This document shows positions 13,986-56,601 of a stretch of DNA of 64,000 nt, in pieces. How positions within the stretch are numbered: position 1 is the stretch's first letter; each line of letters starts with the position of its first letter. Source of the stretch: Buchnera aphidicola (Hyalopterus amygdali). GTDB lineage: Bacteria > Pseudomonadota > Gammaproteobacteria > Enterobacterales > Enterobacteriaceae. Location: assembly GCF_964059015.1 (NCBI RefSeq), contig NZ_OZ060383.1, forward strand, positions 558,001 through 622,000. Direction: 5' to 3'. The notes beneath the pieces were generated by a model, which worked only from the letters and a program-made list of their open reading frames with translations, was not told the DNA's origin and did no database searches. The translations under genes and the position numbers were made by a program.

Positions 13986-14563
13986 TTAATAAAAGGAATT
14001 TTTATCATGAAAATGATCAGTCTTATCAACAACTTTTTTTATTTCAGGAAAAAAAGATAATATTTTTTTTTCAACTATTTGTTTTAAAGTAGAACCAATC
14101 ATTGAACATCCATTACATCCCCCACTAAATTTTATTAAAGCCATATGATTTTCATCAATTTTAATTAAATTAACTTTTCCGCCGTGCATTGATAATTGAG
14201 GATTTATACTAATATTCAAAAAATTTTCTATTTTTCTTGTAAAGAAGATGTATTTTTATGCAAAATGTTTTTTGTAGCATATGGTGCTTTAAAAGTTAAA
14301 TGAGAACCTAGTTTATCTACTATTAAATCAATTTTAGAATTTTTTAAAAAACCAATAATAGATTTATCAACGTAAACAAAGAAATTCTCATATTTTATTT
14401 TTATATCAGATTCTTCTACTTCGTTCTTTTCACAATATGCTACTCCACATTCTGCATTATGAGTTCCTGGATTAATAATAAAAACACGTATTTGGGTTCC
14501 AATAGATTCTTTGGATAAAAGTGAAGTAAAATGATTTTGAGCATTTTTAGAAATAGTAATCAT
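13986..14563 (-). pseudogene. nfuA: NfuA Fe-S biogenesis protein, split by a one-base frameshift
   Basis: An N-terminal A-type-like domain (14563-14228, starting MITISKNAQNHFTSLL, with GTHNAECGVAYC) ends at a TAG. The C-terminal NifU-like domain continues in another frame (INPQLSMHGGKVNL, GGCNGCSM with the CxxC cluster ligands) to 13986. Adding one A to the A5 run at 14231-14235 (minus strand) joins them as EKIENFLNISINPQL, giving about 192 residues like E. coli NfuA (191). NfuA carries a [4Fe-4S] cluster to client apoproteins. Both halves are otherwise well conserved, so the break is recent, compensated by slippage, or an assembly error. Confidence 0.85.
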
Positions 14564-14664
14564 TAACTTAAATTTAACTATAATTTTAATTATATATAAT
14601 ACTACTAACTTATTAAAATAAAAACAAGAATATTCTATATAAAAAATATTCTTTTGGAGAAAAA

Positions 14665-15433
14665 ATGCAACAATTTTATTGGAAAACTATTGGTAATGGC
14701 AATGTTAATATTGTTTTATTAAATGGATGGGGTTTTAATTCAGAAATATGGTTTTTTATAATAAAAAAATTAAATAATATATTTAAGTTTCATTTAATTG
14801 ACTTACCAGGAATAGGGGTAAATAGGCATATAGATCCTATGAAAATAAATGAAATAACTTCAATTTTATACAATAATATGAAAAAAAAATCAATTTTTTT
14901 AGGATGGTCAATAGGAGGATTAATTGCTAATCAATTCGCAATGTCATATCCAGAACGTGTATTAGGAATAATAAATGTAGCATCTTCTCCATGTTTTACA
15001 AAAAAAAAAATGGCCTGGAATAGAAAAAGAAAAAATATTTTATTTTTATAAAAATTTAACAAAAAATTATTATGAAACTATAATTAATTTTTTATATATA
15101 CAAATGATGGGATTAAAAAATCCTCCTAAAGACTTAAACTATTTAAAAAAAATATTATCTTATGCAGAACAACCAAATAATAAATCATTAAAAAACGGAT
15201 TAGAAATACTTCTTTCGACTGATTTAAGATACGAAAAAAATATATTTAAATTTCCATTTTTACGTATATATGGTTCATTAGATATTTTAGTTTCAAAAAA
15301 AATATGTAAAATACTTGATGAAAAATGGCCTGATTCTAGTTCTATTGTTATAGAAAAAGCTGCACACGCCCCATTTATTTCTCACAAAGAAAAATTTTGT
15401 TCTATTATATTAAAATTTATAAAATCTTTATAA
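14665..15433 (+). pseudogene. bioH: BioH pimeloyl-ACP methyl ester esterase, split by a one-base frameshift
   Basis: The first part (14665-15051) is an alpha/beta-hydrolase N-terminus with LNGWGFNSE, nucleophile elbow GWSIGG (Ser82, as in E. coli) and NVASSPCF. The frame is lost at an 11-A run (15000-15010). Downstream, the +1 frame reads WPGIEKEKIFYFYKNL and continues to 15433 with the acid (YGSLDIL) and the catalytic His (AAHAPFISH). Removing one A restores a protein of about 255 residues, E. coli size (256). BioH releases pimeloyl-ACP for biotin synthesis. The start has a GGAGAAAAA Shine-Dalgarno. In E. coli gntX separates bioH and nfuA; it is absent here. Confidence 0.87.
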
Positions 15434-15444
15434 AAGATATACTA

Positions 15445-15490
15445 TATAGACCCCAAAATATAATTGGGGCTATAAATATTTTTATTTTTT
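15445..15490 (+). terminator. Probable Rho-independent terminator of bioH
   Basis: CCCCAA (15451-15456) pairs with TTGGGG (15464-15469) around a 7-base A/T loop. The stem is extended after a one-base bulge by TATAG (15445-15449) with CTATA (15470-15474), and a T-rich tail (15477-15490) follows. It lies 12 bases past the bioH stop, between convergent bioH and ssb. The G/C block is conspicuous in this A/T background. Confidence 0.6.
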
Positions 15491-53783: not shown

Positions 53784-53802
53784 TCTAAATATATGCTCCT
53801 AT
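53762..53802 (-). terminator. Rho-independent terminator of pitA
   Basis: On the minus strand ATAGGAGCA (53802-53794) pairs with TGCTCCTAT (53778-53770), followed directly by a run of T's (53769-53762). This is a classic terminator about 30 bases past the pitA stop. The stem lies inside the last codons of rsmJ, so it constrains that gene's C-terminus. Confidence 0.68.
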
Positions 53803-53830
53803 ATAAAATAATCTTCAATTTTAAATATTT

Positions 53831-55303
53831 TTATATAAATAAAAGCATAATCCGATAAAAAAAACTAGATAATAAAATTGAAATGGGCAAAGTTAATATC
53901 CAAGCAAGAGCAATATTTTTTATTGTGTTAACTTGAATTCCATTTCCGTCTCCTAACATTGCTCCAGCTACAGATGAAGATAAGATATGTGTTGTAGATA
54001 CTGGTATACCTGTATAACTAGCTATACCAATAGAAATAGAAGCAGTTATTTGTGCTGACATAGCTTGACCATATGTCATTCTCTTCTTTCCTATTTTTTC
54101 ACCAATTGTGACAACTATGCGTTTCCAACCGATCATGGTTCCTATAGATAAAGATAACGCAATAATTAATATTATCCACATTGGTGCATATTCAATTGAT
54201 TTAAGTATATTTACCTTACTTTCTTCTAAAAAATATTTTTCTTTTTTAGAAACATTTAAAAGATGTATTGTTTGATCAATATTTTCTGAAAGAAAAAGAA
54301 AAAAATGACGTAGTTTAAATTTTTTTTCTATACTTAATTCGTTATAATTGTATATTTTAGATAATAAAGATCTAGTTTTTTTTATATTTCTTATAATTTT
54401 AAAGTAATTATAATTTTTAATTGGATAGTTATTTTTTTTTTGATTACTAATATTTTTAATTATTATGACTTTATTAGTTGAATAGTATTTATATAATTGA
54501 TTAATTGTATTTTTTGTATAGAGAATTTCTTTTTTAGATGTATTTAAGTTAATTAAAAAACCAGACGGCACAATTCCAATAAGTACAAGCATCAGCAAGC
54601 CAATACCTTTCTGACCATCATTAGCTCCATGAGTATAACTAACTCCAATAGATGATAAAATTAAAGCAGCTTTAATTAAAAAAGGTGGTGTTTTTTTTCC
54701 ATCTTTTTTTTCTCGTTCTAACGGCGTCATATGAATATGATGAAAATTTTTTTTATTCTTTAAAAAAAAACGAAATAAAAATATCAAACTTCCAGAGATA
54801 ATTAATCCCACAATAGGAGAAAAAACGAGAGATAAAAAAACGTTCATCATTTTAGGGATGTTTAATGCTTCAACTAAAGAAGAATTAGTAATCATTGCAT
54901 TAGTTAAACCAATCCCAATGATTGCCCCAATTAACGAATGTGAACTTGATGCTGGCAAACAAAAGTACCAAGTAAGTAAATTCCATAATATAGCGGACAA
55001 TAACATAGAAAAAACCATAGCAAGTGCATGTTTTGAGCTACTATTTAATAGTAAATCATTAGGTAATAGATGAACAATAGCATATGCAACTGTTAGCCCA
55101 CCAAGTAAAACACCAAGAAAATTAAAGACACCAGACATAATTACAGCAAAGGGAGCGGACATTGCACGGGTATAGATGAGCGTTGAAACAGCATTAGCTG
55201 TATCATGAAAACCATTAATAGCTTCATAACATAATACAAAAAATAAAGCAAAAAAAACAAACAAACTATGATTCAAATCGGAAGACGAAAATAAATATAG
55301 CAT
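53831..55303 (-). CDS. pitA: PitA-type low-affinity inorganic phosphate transporter
   Basis: The 490-residue PiT-family membrane protein (E. coli 499) has two PiT signatures, YEAINGFHDTANAVSTLIY near the N-terminus and the related SAQITASISIGIASYTGIPVSTTHILSSSVAGAM near the C-terminus. SSHSLIGAIIGIGL and SYTHGANDGQKGIGL are also present. The central cytoplasmic loop (about residues 255-370) is drifted and Lys/Asn-rich. It imports phosphate, with divalent metal, driven by protons. Confidence 0.95.
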   Translation of the reverse strand: MLYLFSSSDLNHSLFVFFALFFVLCYEAINGFHDTANAVSTLIYTRAMSAPFAVIMSGVFNFLGVLLGGLTVAYAIVHLLPNDLLLNSSSKHALAMVFSMLLSAILWNLLTWYFCLPASSSHSLIGAIIGIGLTNAMITNSSLVEALNIPKMMNVFLSLVFSPIVGLIISGSLIFLFRFFLKNKKNFHHIHMTPLEREKKDGKKTPPFLIKAALILSSIGVSYTHGANDGQKGIGLLMLVLIGIVPSGFLINLNTSKKEILYTKNTINQLYKYYSTNKVIIIKNISNQKKNNYPIKNYNYFKIIRNIKKTRSLLSKIYNYNELSIEKKFKLRHFFLFLSENIDQTIHLLNVSKKEKYFLEESKVNILKSIEYAPMWIILIIALSLSIGTMIGWKRIVVTIGEKIGKKRMTYGQAMSAQITASISIGIASYTGIPVSTTHILSSSVAGAMLGDGNGIQVNTIKNIALAWILTLPISILLSSFFYRIMLLFI

Positions 55304-55424
55304 AATCTTTAAGCCATTTTGATGAATTGAACTAAGTTGATTATCTGTAAAAAACCATGTTATAAAAAATGAAATATAAATTTTATTAAAAAATAAAAAA
55401 ATATTTTTTGTATATTGTATTAAT

Positions 55425-56601
55425 TTATTTTATTTTTTTTAATTTAAATGACATAAATATTCCGAAAATTAGTACAAGAATAATAAAAGTCGAAATACCT
55501 TTCCATTTTAAATAGAACCAAAAAAAACCTCCGCATGTACCAAATATACTTGACCCTAAATAATAAAAAAATAAATATAAAGATGTTGCTTGTACTTTTG
55601 CAAATTTTGCATAAGAACCAATCCAACTACTGGCTATTGAATGAGATGCAAAAAAACCGCCTGAAAATATTATTAATCCTAAAATAATCATTAAAATATG
55701 ATTGCATTGTGTAATTAATAGTCCTAAAATCATTAATAATAATGATATGCTTAATATATTATTACGACTATATTTATGTGTTAAAATGCCAGCTTTAGGA
55801 GAACTATAAACTCCCGTTAAATAAATAATAGATAAAAAACCTATAGTTGAGGGAGACAAAAAAAAGGGGGGCAACATTAAACGATAACCTATATAATTAA
55901 AAATTGTAATAAAACTTCCCATTAGGATAAATCCTATTACAAATAAAATAAATAATGTAGGATTTTTAAAATGTAAATAAAAATTTTTTAAAAATTTATG
56001 AACATTTATAGAAATAGAATGAAAATTTTTTGATGATGGTAAAAAATATAAAAAAAGACAAGATGAAAAAAAAGAAAAACAACCAATGACTATAAGTGCA
56101 ATATTCCAAGAAAAATATTCAGCTAAAATACTGCTTAAAAGTCGACCTGAAAATCCACCTATAGTATTTCCACTAATATATAAACCCATGCAAAATGATA
56201 CATATTCAGGGTCAATTTCTTCCATAATATAAGTCATAGCAACTGCAACAACACCACTTAAAGCGAGTCCTGTCAAAGAACGAAGAAAAACAATAAACAT
56301 CCAACTATTTGTAGTTGCACATATAATAGTAAGTATTGCTGCAACTAACAAAGAAAAAGACATAATTGATTTACGGCCAATCTTATCTGATAAAGGACCG
56401 ATAAATAATGTTCCAATAGCCATTGTTGCAGTGGCTGCTGATAAAGACAAACTGCTTTCTGTAGCACTTAAAGAAAATTCTTTAGAAAATATTGGTAAAA
56501 TTGATTGTACACAATATAAAATAGAGAAACTAGAAAATCCTCCTAAAAAAAGAGATAAAACAATTTGATTAAATTTTTTTGTATTTTTTTTTTAATAACA
56601 T
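55425..56601 (-). CDS. ynfM: YnfM-like MFS transporter, start region disrupted at a poly-A run
   Basis: The open frame from 56450 downwards encodes MFS helices 2-12 with the loop motif GPLSDKIGRKSIM. In-frame sequence upstream of that TTG is still good protein: helix 1 (NQIVLSLFLGGFSSFSILYCVQSILPIFSKEF), as in E. coli YnfM, with no initiator before a stop at 56594. An ATG at 56601 with a GGA Shine-Dalgarno reads MLLKK and joins helix 1 if one A is lost from the A10 run at 56584-56593. That gives about 391 residues (E. coli YnfM 417). Substrate is unknown; it belongs to the sugar-efflux-like MFS group. The exact orthology is an inference. Confidence 0.72.

What the first reader, a model, noticed from the sequence alone, without database searches (positions are those of the whole stretch)
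14231..56593. Window-wide pattern: at least eight genes each broken by one base in an A or T homopolymer
nfuA (A5), bioH (A11), pyrE (A9), miaA (A11), amiB (T9), the ftsN remnant (T6), the 51-52 kb orphan (A9) and the YnfM-like gene (A10) lose frame at a homopolymer. In each case one base added or removed restores an otherwise continuous, conserved reading frame. Ordinary decay would also leave substitution stops and indels outside runs. Poly(A) transcriptional slippage rescuing frameshifted genes has been reported for Buchnera, so many of these may still make some full-length protein. The alternative is systematic homopolymer error in the assembly.
Basis: partly seen in the sequence, partly recalled or inferred. 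Interest (0 to 1): 0.85.

Follow-up and report, generated by a model that had tools for sequence, protein, structure and literature searches.

The report
Broken-frame symbiont genes kept by slippage
In an aphid's bacterial partner several genes look broken by one letter at a long run of A's, yet close relatives have kept the same breaks for very long, so the cell probably still reads through them; one such break, at a run of exactly nine A's, splits what seems to be a single gene in almost every related species compared.

Summary
The window is a Buchnera chromosome (aphid symbiont), compared here with 35 relatives of its genus. Of the eight reported breaks, four are real and old: bioH and miaA (shared by 4 genomes), pyrE (14 genomes) and the 51-52 kb orphan. 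ynfM (A10) and nfuA (A5) are private to this genome, amiB is probable, ftsN inconclusive. Assembly error does not explain the shared ones. In 1414 gene-genome alignments, 57 genes carry a lone frameshift, 48 beside an A/T run of 9 or more (background 2.6%); 17 decayed genes carry 3 or more lesions, rarely at runs. dN/dS stays below 1 on both sides of the breaks in miaA, bioH and pyrE. This fits the published poly(A)-slippage rescue in Buchnera; no RNA was seen here.

New, as far as my searches show: the two orphan ORFs (yba4/yba3, names recalled) look like one gene. Their join has a run of exactly nine A's in 34 of 34 genomes; the parts lie in different frames in the 32 where both ORFs were found, and the second has no usual start codon near it. 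In 8 of 8 matches outside the genus it is one ORF. I read it as a kept slippage site; polymerase or ribosome is undecided.

The parts
52399..52716 (-). Upstream orphan ORF (yba4-like, begins MSSN, 105 aa), first part of the split gene
   Evidence: no hit in Pfam or NCBIfam
51239..52441 (-). Downstream orphan ORF (yba3-like, 400 aa stop to stop, first ATG 58 codons in), second part, in another frame
52408..52416 (-). A9 tract (T9 on +) in the overlap of the two orphan ORFs; exactly 9 in 34 of 34 genomes
27001..27659 (+). pyrE; its first codons and the rest lie in different frames
27036..27044 (+). A9 followed by G in pyrE; A9-G in all 14 shifted genomes
36353..37296 (-). miaA in two overlapping ORFs, shifted in 4 sister genomes
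36873..36883 (-). A11 tract (T11 on +) in miaA
14665..15433 (+). bioH in two ORFs, shifted in 4 sister genomes
15000..15010 (+). A11 tract in bioH, same length in all 4
55425..56593 (-). ynfM-like MFS transporter; 5' end out of frame at an A10 tract (T10 on +, 56584-56593), A11 in the nearest relatives
13986..14563 (-). nfuA, split at a 5-base run (14231-14235), private to this genome
45029..45790 (+). amiB enzyme part; signal-anchor part upstream in another frame at T9 (45029-45037)
46284..46490 (+). ftsN remnant, status inconclusive
44603..44613 (+). A11 tract in orn, in frame here, out of frame in six relatives (comparator)

Best explanation
These are genuine, mostly old frameshifts at long A (or T) tracts in genes that the symbiont still uses. 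At runs of about nine or more the RNA polymerase (and possibly the ribosome) slips, so part of the transcripts or translations come out in the right frame; such lesions are therefore tolerated and can persist, whereas lesions elsewhere start ordinary decay. In one case, the orphan pair yba4/yba3, the tract seems to be the normal way of expression: one ancestral gene was split in the ancestor of this genus and has been read across an A9 of fixed length ever since. Shown: the shifts, their sharing, the run-length dependence, dN/dS below 1 on both sides in miaA, bioH and pyrE, and the invariance of A9 at yba. Inferred: that slippage takes place and yields protein, and that the out-of-frame state of yba is itself selected.
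For: (1) Of 1414 alignments 57 have a lone frameshift, none exactly two lesions, 17 three or more; 48 of 57 lone shifts lie near runs of 9 or more against 3 of 78 shifts in the 17 decayed genes, which also hold 82 stops; one stop among the 58 lone lesions. (2) Shift frequency per sense A run: A5-A8 4 of 15,324; A9 16 of 810; A10 16 of 217; A11 7 of 40; A12 3 of 7; A13 or more 4 of 8. (3) Shared by descent: bioH and miaA one change each, pyrE three on the tree (12 genomes set unknown for bioH, 1 for miaA); G013 is in frame inside the shifted pyrE clade. (4) dN/dS before / after the shift, six pairs of the four-genome clade: miaA 0.08-0.13 / 0.17-0.25; bioH 0.14-0.39 / 0.16-0.54; pyrE after it 0.15-0.26 (only 10 codons before); whole intact genes of the block about 0.01-0.46. 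(5) yba: exactly A9 in 34 of 34 genomes, while 0 of 215 other tract sites keep one length of 9 or more in 90% of genomes; no ATG, GTG or TTG in the second frame from its opening to 20 codons past the tract in 32 of 32; that frame opens between 2 nt after and 34 nt before the start of the tract in 32 of 32; one natural in-frame copy (G016); one open frame in 8 of 8 matches outside the genus, 7 of 8 beside the same neighbours. (6) Published: 12-50% corrected transcripts in such genes as told in a review (PMC5009743, passage); corrected mRNA in Buchnera of Rhopalosiphum padi (PMC3164680, passage).
Against: No RNA or protein data here. PMC5574713 reports no transcription error restoring a frame in Buchnera. 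bioH of this genome against its sisters has dN/dS 0.42-0.54 after the shift, so it may be weakening here. For yba, dN/dS is 0.46-1.30 before the tract and 0.27-1.10 between tract and first ATG in nine pairs, so purifying selection on these parts is not shown, and the first halves of the matches outside the genus do not align beyond the start motif. In control stretches G001 has four lone stops (two near a start), one gene with two lesions, and only 2 of its 7 lone lesions lie near runs of 9 or more; for G000 it is 5 of 10 or 3 of 6 by reference. yeeX and pyrE tracts come close to the yba invariance (24 of 27, 32 of 36). No stimulatory RNA structure or Shine-Dalgarno-like motif at the yba tract.
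Confidence: 0.75

Rival explanations
1. Assembly or sequencing error in homopolymers.
For: nfuA (5-base run) and ynfM are private to this genome; a DnaE-like gene (name recalled) in a control stretch is also shifted at a 6-base run.
Against: bioH, miaA, pyrE and yba shifts recur in separate genomes, among them G001, whose chromosome length (641,454) equals that printed for Schizaphis graminum Buchnera. G000 is no outlier: 4 lone shifts in the tallied genes against 7, 5 and 3 in its sisters.
Confidence: 0.07
2. Young pseudogenes caught early in decay, with no rescue.
For: Long runs mutate fastest, so first lesions fall there; this alone predicts run-length dependence. PMC3164680 (passage) says such mutations are commonly interpreted as recent inactivations. 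Lone stops also occur. bioH of G000 is less constrained.
Against: pyrE is shifted in 13 genomes of one clade and once more in G012, with one lesion in each; miaA and bioH in 4 with one each; dN/dS after the shift stays low among the sisters. G013 is in frame inside the pyrE clade. No tallied gene has exactly two lesions.
Confidence: 0.12
3. The rescue is ribosomal -1 frameshifting on A-rich codons rather than polymerase slippage.
For: Lone shifts at sense A runs of 9 or more are mostly one base short: 38 against 8 gene-genomes, about 17 against 4 independent events by hand count (p 0.007). pyrE has A-AAA-AAG in phase in 14 of 14 (the motif as a slippery site is recalled from dnaX). Ribosomal rescue was proposed for Buchnera of Pentalonia (PMC7245037, passage).
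Against: The same bias is predicted by polymerase slippage, which in Buchnera homopolymers mostly inserts (151 of 157 insertions but 16 of 57 deletions lay in homopolymers; PMC5574713), and by a deletion bias of replication. Opposite-phase cases exist: bioH in 4 genomes, miaA in 2, orn in 2, yba in 3 of 32. No Shine-Dalgarno-like motif (0 of 32) and no downstream structure (mean z -0.04, 2 of 32 below -2) at the yba tract.
Confidence: 0.3
4. yba4 and yba3 are two separate genes in an operon, each with its own start.
For: They are treated as two orphan genes in print (PMC1899503, passages); the first ORF and the linking stretch are weakly constrained.
Against: No ATG, GTG or TTG near the opening of the second frame in 32 of 32, first ATG 25-193 codons past the tract; one open frame in 8 of 8 outside matches and in G016; A9 invariant. 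Rarer start codons were not tested.
Confidence: 0.12

Closest known systems
Poly(A) transcriptional slippage rescuing frameshifted genes in Buchnera and Blochmannia (Tamas 2008; not held, known through citing papers)
   Same: AT-rich insect symbiont, single shift at an A or T tract of 9 or more, frame otherwise intact and constrained.
   Different: No RNA shown here; several shifts are shared by species, and the yba tract has one length in all 34 genomes compared.
Ancient frameshifts maintained in Blochmannia (Wernegreen 2010; not held, seen in passages and reference list of PMC3017870)
   Same: Frameshifts conserved between species without decay.
   Different: Other genes and host group; here one split is found in 32 genomes, and matches outside the genus show the gene whole.
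Homopolymeric frameshifts counted in Buchnera genomes (Degnan 2011, PMC3164680, passages and Table 1)
   Same: Same genus; 8-18 per Aphidinae genome listed, 18 in Schizaphis graminum Buchnera.
   Different: 42 of 69 pseudogenes there are single-genome homopolymer cases; the main text does not contain pyrE, bioH, miaA or yba (supplements not seen).
Thermus thermophilus dnaX slippage at a run of nine (PMC5009743, passages)
   Same: Run of nine, productive use of slippage proposed.
   Different: There the longer product lies in a single ORF; here it is the longer product that needs the slip.
E. coli dnaX and IS-element -1 ribosomal frameshifting (recalled)
   Same: A-rich slippery codons in phase (pyrE).
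   Different: No stimulatory elements found at yba; the other phase occurs in some genomes.

Membership tests
Poly(A) slippage-rescued symbiont gene | single indel at a long homopolymer, otherwise open frame | tested here: met
   bioH, miaA, yba at the tract, pyrE beside it
Poly(A) slippage-rescued symbiont gene | purifying selection on both sides of the shift (miaA, bioH, pyrE) | tested here: met
   miaA 0.08-0.13 / 0.17-0.25; bioH 0.14-0.39 / 0.16-0.54; pyrE after it 0.15-0.26, only 10 codons before
Poly(A) slippage-rescued symbiont gene | purifying selection on both sides (yba) | tested here: inconclusive
   before 0.46-1.30, link 0.27-1.10, rest 0.17-0.54 in nine pairs
Poly(A) slippage-rescued symbiont gene | transcripts of mixed tract length | not testable with these tools
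   no RNA data
Programmed -1 ribosomal frameshift | slippery heptamer in phase | tested here: met
   A-AAA-AAG in pyrE in 14 of 14; an in-phase A9 offers A-AAA-AAA
Programmed -1 ribosomal frameshift | stimulatory SD-like motif or downstream structure | tested here: not met
   yba: 0 of 32 and mean z -0.04; pyrE not tested
Programmed -1 ribosomal frameshift | always the same phase | tested here: not met
   yba 29 of 32 one phase, 3 of 32 the other
Decaying pseudogene | several lesions, stops, relaxed constraint | tested here: not met
   one lesion each in bioH, miaA and pyrE of the four-genome clade; bioH of G000 less constrained
EspG/VirA fold | similar fold of the second orphan ORF | tested here: inconclusive
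   top Foldseek rows in two models, best E 1.5e-4 and 4.8e-4, but TM 0.11-0.25 and rmsd 8-12

The most novel reading that the evidence does not exclude
The two highly expressed 'orphan genes' of Buchnera are one gene. Its full-length product is made only by slippage at an A9 tract whose length selection has held at nine, out of frame, across the genus since before the Aphidini-Macrosiphini split (set at 65 million years in PMC3164680), perhaps to keep a ratio of short to long product. The long product may have an EspG/VirA-like domain and act at the host interface.
Probability: 0.5. Interest if true: 0.8.

Novelty: new variant of a known kind. Interest (0 to 1): 0.62.

Why it matters
Slippage rescue in Buchnera has been in print since 2008 (recalled; cited), mostly as tolerated damage. 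Here comparative data turn it into a testable claim for named genes: which shifts are old, how tolerance rises with run length, and one site where the broken state looks like the normal, selected state. If so, two orphan genes need merging, annotation that calls such genes lost is wrong, and a natural slippage site kept across a genus is available to tell polymerase from ribosome slippage in symbionts.

Tried and rejected
Assembly error as the general explanation: rejected for the shared cases. A dnaX-like stimulated frameshift at yba: no motif, no structure. A versus T tracts: shift rates 46 of 1082 and 2 of 105 for runs of 9 or more, not different (p 0.43). yggS: ten genomes looked shifted at a 5' A10 tract; one (G002) has a nearby ATG in the right frame, the start is poorly conserved and the tree needs five changes, so I do not count it as one old event, although its rows stay in the tallies. 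rsmJ (2 genomes) needs two changes on that tree. ynfM and amiB have unsure starts and were left out of the tallies with yba3, yba4 and ftsN. The control stretches used one reference genome at a time and are noisier at gene ends. Pfam, NCBIfam and PDB sequence searches for the orphan gave nothing significant. The genome-contig scan returned 80 loci, none of Buchnera by title, and was not used. Paper searches: slippage, pyrE with frameshift, yba3/yba4, orphan genes, programmed frameshift, proteome (15 of 25 listed); no listing shows yba4/yba3 treated as one gene, but I saw most of these papers only as listings. Tamas 2008 and Wernegreen 2010 are not held; Shimomura 2002 was seen only in reference lists.
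Full report
What the window is. The window is bases 558001-622000 of the chromosome (C1, 632,418 bases) of a 646,967-base, three-contig genome, 99.7% complete. Its genus holds 36 genomes here. Chromosome lengths of four relatives (G001 641,454; G002 641,794; G017 615,380; G029 640,681) equal those printed for Buchnera of Schizaphis graminum, Acyrthosiphon kondoi, Uroleucon ambrosiae and A. pisum Tokyo in Table 1 of PMC3164680 (passage), so the window is a Buchnera. 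By the protein tree it groups with G001, G008 and G010, that is with the greenbug symbiont.

Method. I fetched the matching block of about 49 kb from all 35 relatives (part of G029 and a little of G003 read N), listed ORFs, and aligned 46 genes of each genome, where present, to up to four orthologous proteins with a frame-aware aligner written for this. For tallies I left out five genes with unsure ends (yba3, yba4, ftsN, amiB, ynfM); of 1451 alignments of the other 41 genes, 37 were set aside for low identity or coverage and 1414 used. Lesions in the first 6 or last 12 residues, and shifts not seen with at least two references, were not counted. Gene names are recalled from the sequences and gene order except where Pfam gave a family.

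Is it more than chance? Of the 1414, 1339 have no lesion, 58 have one, none has two and 17 have three or more. Of the 58, 57 are frameshifts and one is a stop near a start. 48 of the 57 lie within 16 nt of an A or T run of 9 or more, where a random coding position does so in 2.6%. In the 17 decayed genes only 3 of 78 frameshifts do so, and there are 82 stops. Shift frequency rises steeply with run length: 4 of 15,324 for A5-A8, 16 of 810 for A9, 16 of 217 for A10, 7 of 40 for A11, 3 of 7 for A12, 4 of 8 for longer runs; T runs of 9 or more 2 of 105. These counts are gene-genomes, so shared shifts count several times. The window's genome has 4 such genes of this set; its sisters have 7, 5 and 3.

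Control elsewhere in the genome. In nine 20-kb stretches of the same chromosome, 6 of 140 genes (references from G001) or 10 of 136 (from G010) of G000 show one lesion, 3 events being seen with both; 3 of the 6 and 5 of the 10 lie near runs of 9 or more, and one of the 10 is a stop near a start. In the same stretches G001, against G010, has 7 genes with one lesion of 144 (two near runs of 9 or more; four are stops, two of these near a start), one gene with two lesions, and four with 3, 3, 4 and 24. So the clean gap of the main block, no gene with exactly two lesions and almost no lone stop, does not hold everywhere; single references and unsure gene ends add noise there.

The individual cases. 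miaA: the four sister genomes have runs of A10, A11 or A12 and are out of frame; the 8 of 10 genomes of the neighbouring clade that could be anchored have runs of 3-5 A's there and are in frame. bioH: A11 in the same four, all out of frame; G005 is shifted independently at A9, the sisters G012 and G034 at T9 elsewhere in the gene; in five relatives it is a multi-lesion remnant and in six too poorly matched to count. pyrE: shifted in 14 genomes, all with A9 then G; the first codons (MEWKKEFIE in 11 of 14) are kept in the first frame and the rest in the other. On the tree three changes suffice: the shift at the base of one clade, again in G012, and a loss in G013, which lies inside the clade (bootstrap 100 for the group that leaves out G025; its exact place within that group has 62). 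nfuA: private, at a 5-base run. ynfM: A10 here, A11 in the three sisters, start uncertain. amiB: signal anchor and enzyme in different frames here at a T9, but the spacer is shifted at differing places in most genomes (27 of 32 alignments show a shift or stop there). ftsN: inconclusive.

Are the shifted genes still used? dN/dS was counted before and after the shift in six pairs of the four-genome clade: miaA 0.08-0.13 before and 0.17-0.25 after; bioH 0.14-0.25 and 0.16-0.27 among the three sisters, but 0.22-0.39 and 0.42-0.54 between G000 and them; pyrE 0.15-0.26 after the shift (ten codons before it are too few). Whole intact genes of the block range from about 0.01 to 0.46 (four of six pairs printed). 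One lesion each is seen in these genes in the four genomes. So miaA and pyrE look fully constrained; bioH may be weakening in the window's genome.

The orphan. Two overlapping ORFs lie there, which I take for yba4 and yba3 (names recalled). In 32 genomes both are found, always in different frames: 29 in one relation, 3 (G011, G032, G035) in the other; in all 32 the longest A run of the overlap is exactly nine. G016 and G017 also have nine; in G017 the first part has further breaks, in G016 the two parts form one ORF through a change downstream of the same nine A's. G024 gave no match and that part of G029 is withheld. So nine in 34 of 34. Among 215 other sites where some genome has a run of 9 or more, in those of the 41 genes with at least 25 usable genomes, none keeps one length of 9 or more in 90% of genomes; the best are yeeX (24 of 27) and pyrE (32 of 36), both in well constrained stretches. 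At yba the surroundings evolve fast: dN/dS 0.46-1.30 before the tract, 0.27-1.10 between tract and first ATG, 0.17-0.54 after it, nine pairs. That is also a result against me: selection on the first part and on the link is not shown by dN/dS. The second frame opens between 2 nt after and 34 nt before the start of the tract in 32 of 32, has no ATG, GTG or TTG from its opening to 20 codons past the tract in 32 of 32, and has its first ATG 25-193 codons past the tract.

Outside the genus, 8 of 147 family genomes searched have a match, each rounded to 0.4-0.6 Mb. In all 8 the match lies in one open frame of 317-511 aa that has an ATG near its beginning, giving 316-490 aa; five of these begin with MSS or have it at residue 10, the others begin MSP, MTS and MIP; the first ORF here begins MSSN. 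7 of 8 lie beside fpr, hslU, rsmJ, ynfM or dapF. The first halves do not align beyond that start, so their homology rests on position, start motif and the single ORF. The simplest reading is one ancestral gene, split in the ancestor of this genus and since then read across the tract. As the genus spans Aphidini and Macrosiphini, the split would be older than their divergence, which PMC3164680 fixes at 65 million years. Vinuelas 2007 (PMC1899503, passages) calls yba3 and yba4 the only two orphan genes of Buchnera, both highly expressed and yba4 among the ten highest.

Mechanism. Most lone shifts at sense A runs of 9 or more are one base short (38 of 46 gene-genomes; about 17 of 21 independent events by my hand count, p 0.007). 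Both polymerase slippage that inserts, the prevailing kind in Buchnera homopolymers (PMC5574713, passages and one section), and -1 ribosomal slippage would rescue these; a deletion bias of replication would give the same count. The kept cases of opposite phase (bioH of four genomes, miaA of two, orn of two, yba of three) and the lack of stimulators at yba make polymerase slippage the better general candidate. Against it, PMC5574713 states that no transcription error was seen to restore a reading frame. The A-AAA-AAG in pyrE keeps the ribosome in play there, and PMC7245037 (passage) proposes ribosomal rescue for similar genes.

What is known. The kind is known: a review tells of 12-50% corrected transcripts in such genes (PMC5009743, passages), Degnan 2011 counts 8-18 such genes in each Aphidinae Buchnera listed, and conserved frameshifts are described in Blochmannia (PMC3017870, passages). 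The main text of PMC3164680 does not contain pyrE, bioH, miaA or yba.

Noticed in passing
51239-52267 (-): AlphaFold models of the second orphan ORF (mean pLDDT 73) and of the natural in-frame copy of G016 (65) both have EspG/VirA structures as their best PDB matches (the first 23 and first 22 rows; best E 4.8e-4 and 1.5e-4), but TM only 0.11-0.25 and rmsd 8-12: a lead, not an assignment.
   Followed up: partly
13298-13477 (+): Remnant of a gene that is an ORF of 68-350 aa (median 344) in 23 relatives (asparaginase-like, name recalled): ordinary decay next to nfuA.
   Followed up: no
L229 (own genome C1:260001-280000): A DnaE-like gene (name recalled) is shifted at a 6-base run near its 3' end and an RNase H-like gene (name recalled) at A11, both seen with both references.
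   Followed up: no
44147-44683 (+) and relatives: The orn tract is A11 and in frame here, but A10 to A16 and out of frame in six relatives; orn is essential in E. coli (recalled).
   Followed up: partly
relative G008, murI: A run of 18 A's with a single shift.
   Followed up: no
45029-45790 (+): amiB: signal-anchor part out of frame with the enzyme part in most genomes aligned, at differing places.
   Followed up: partly
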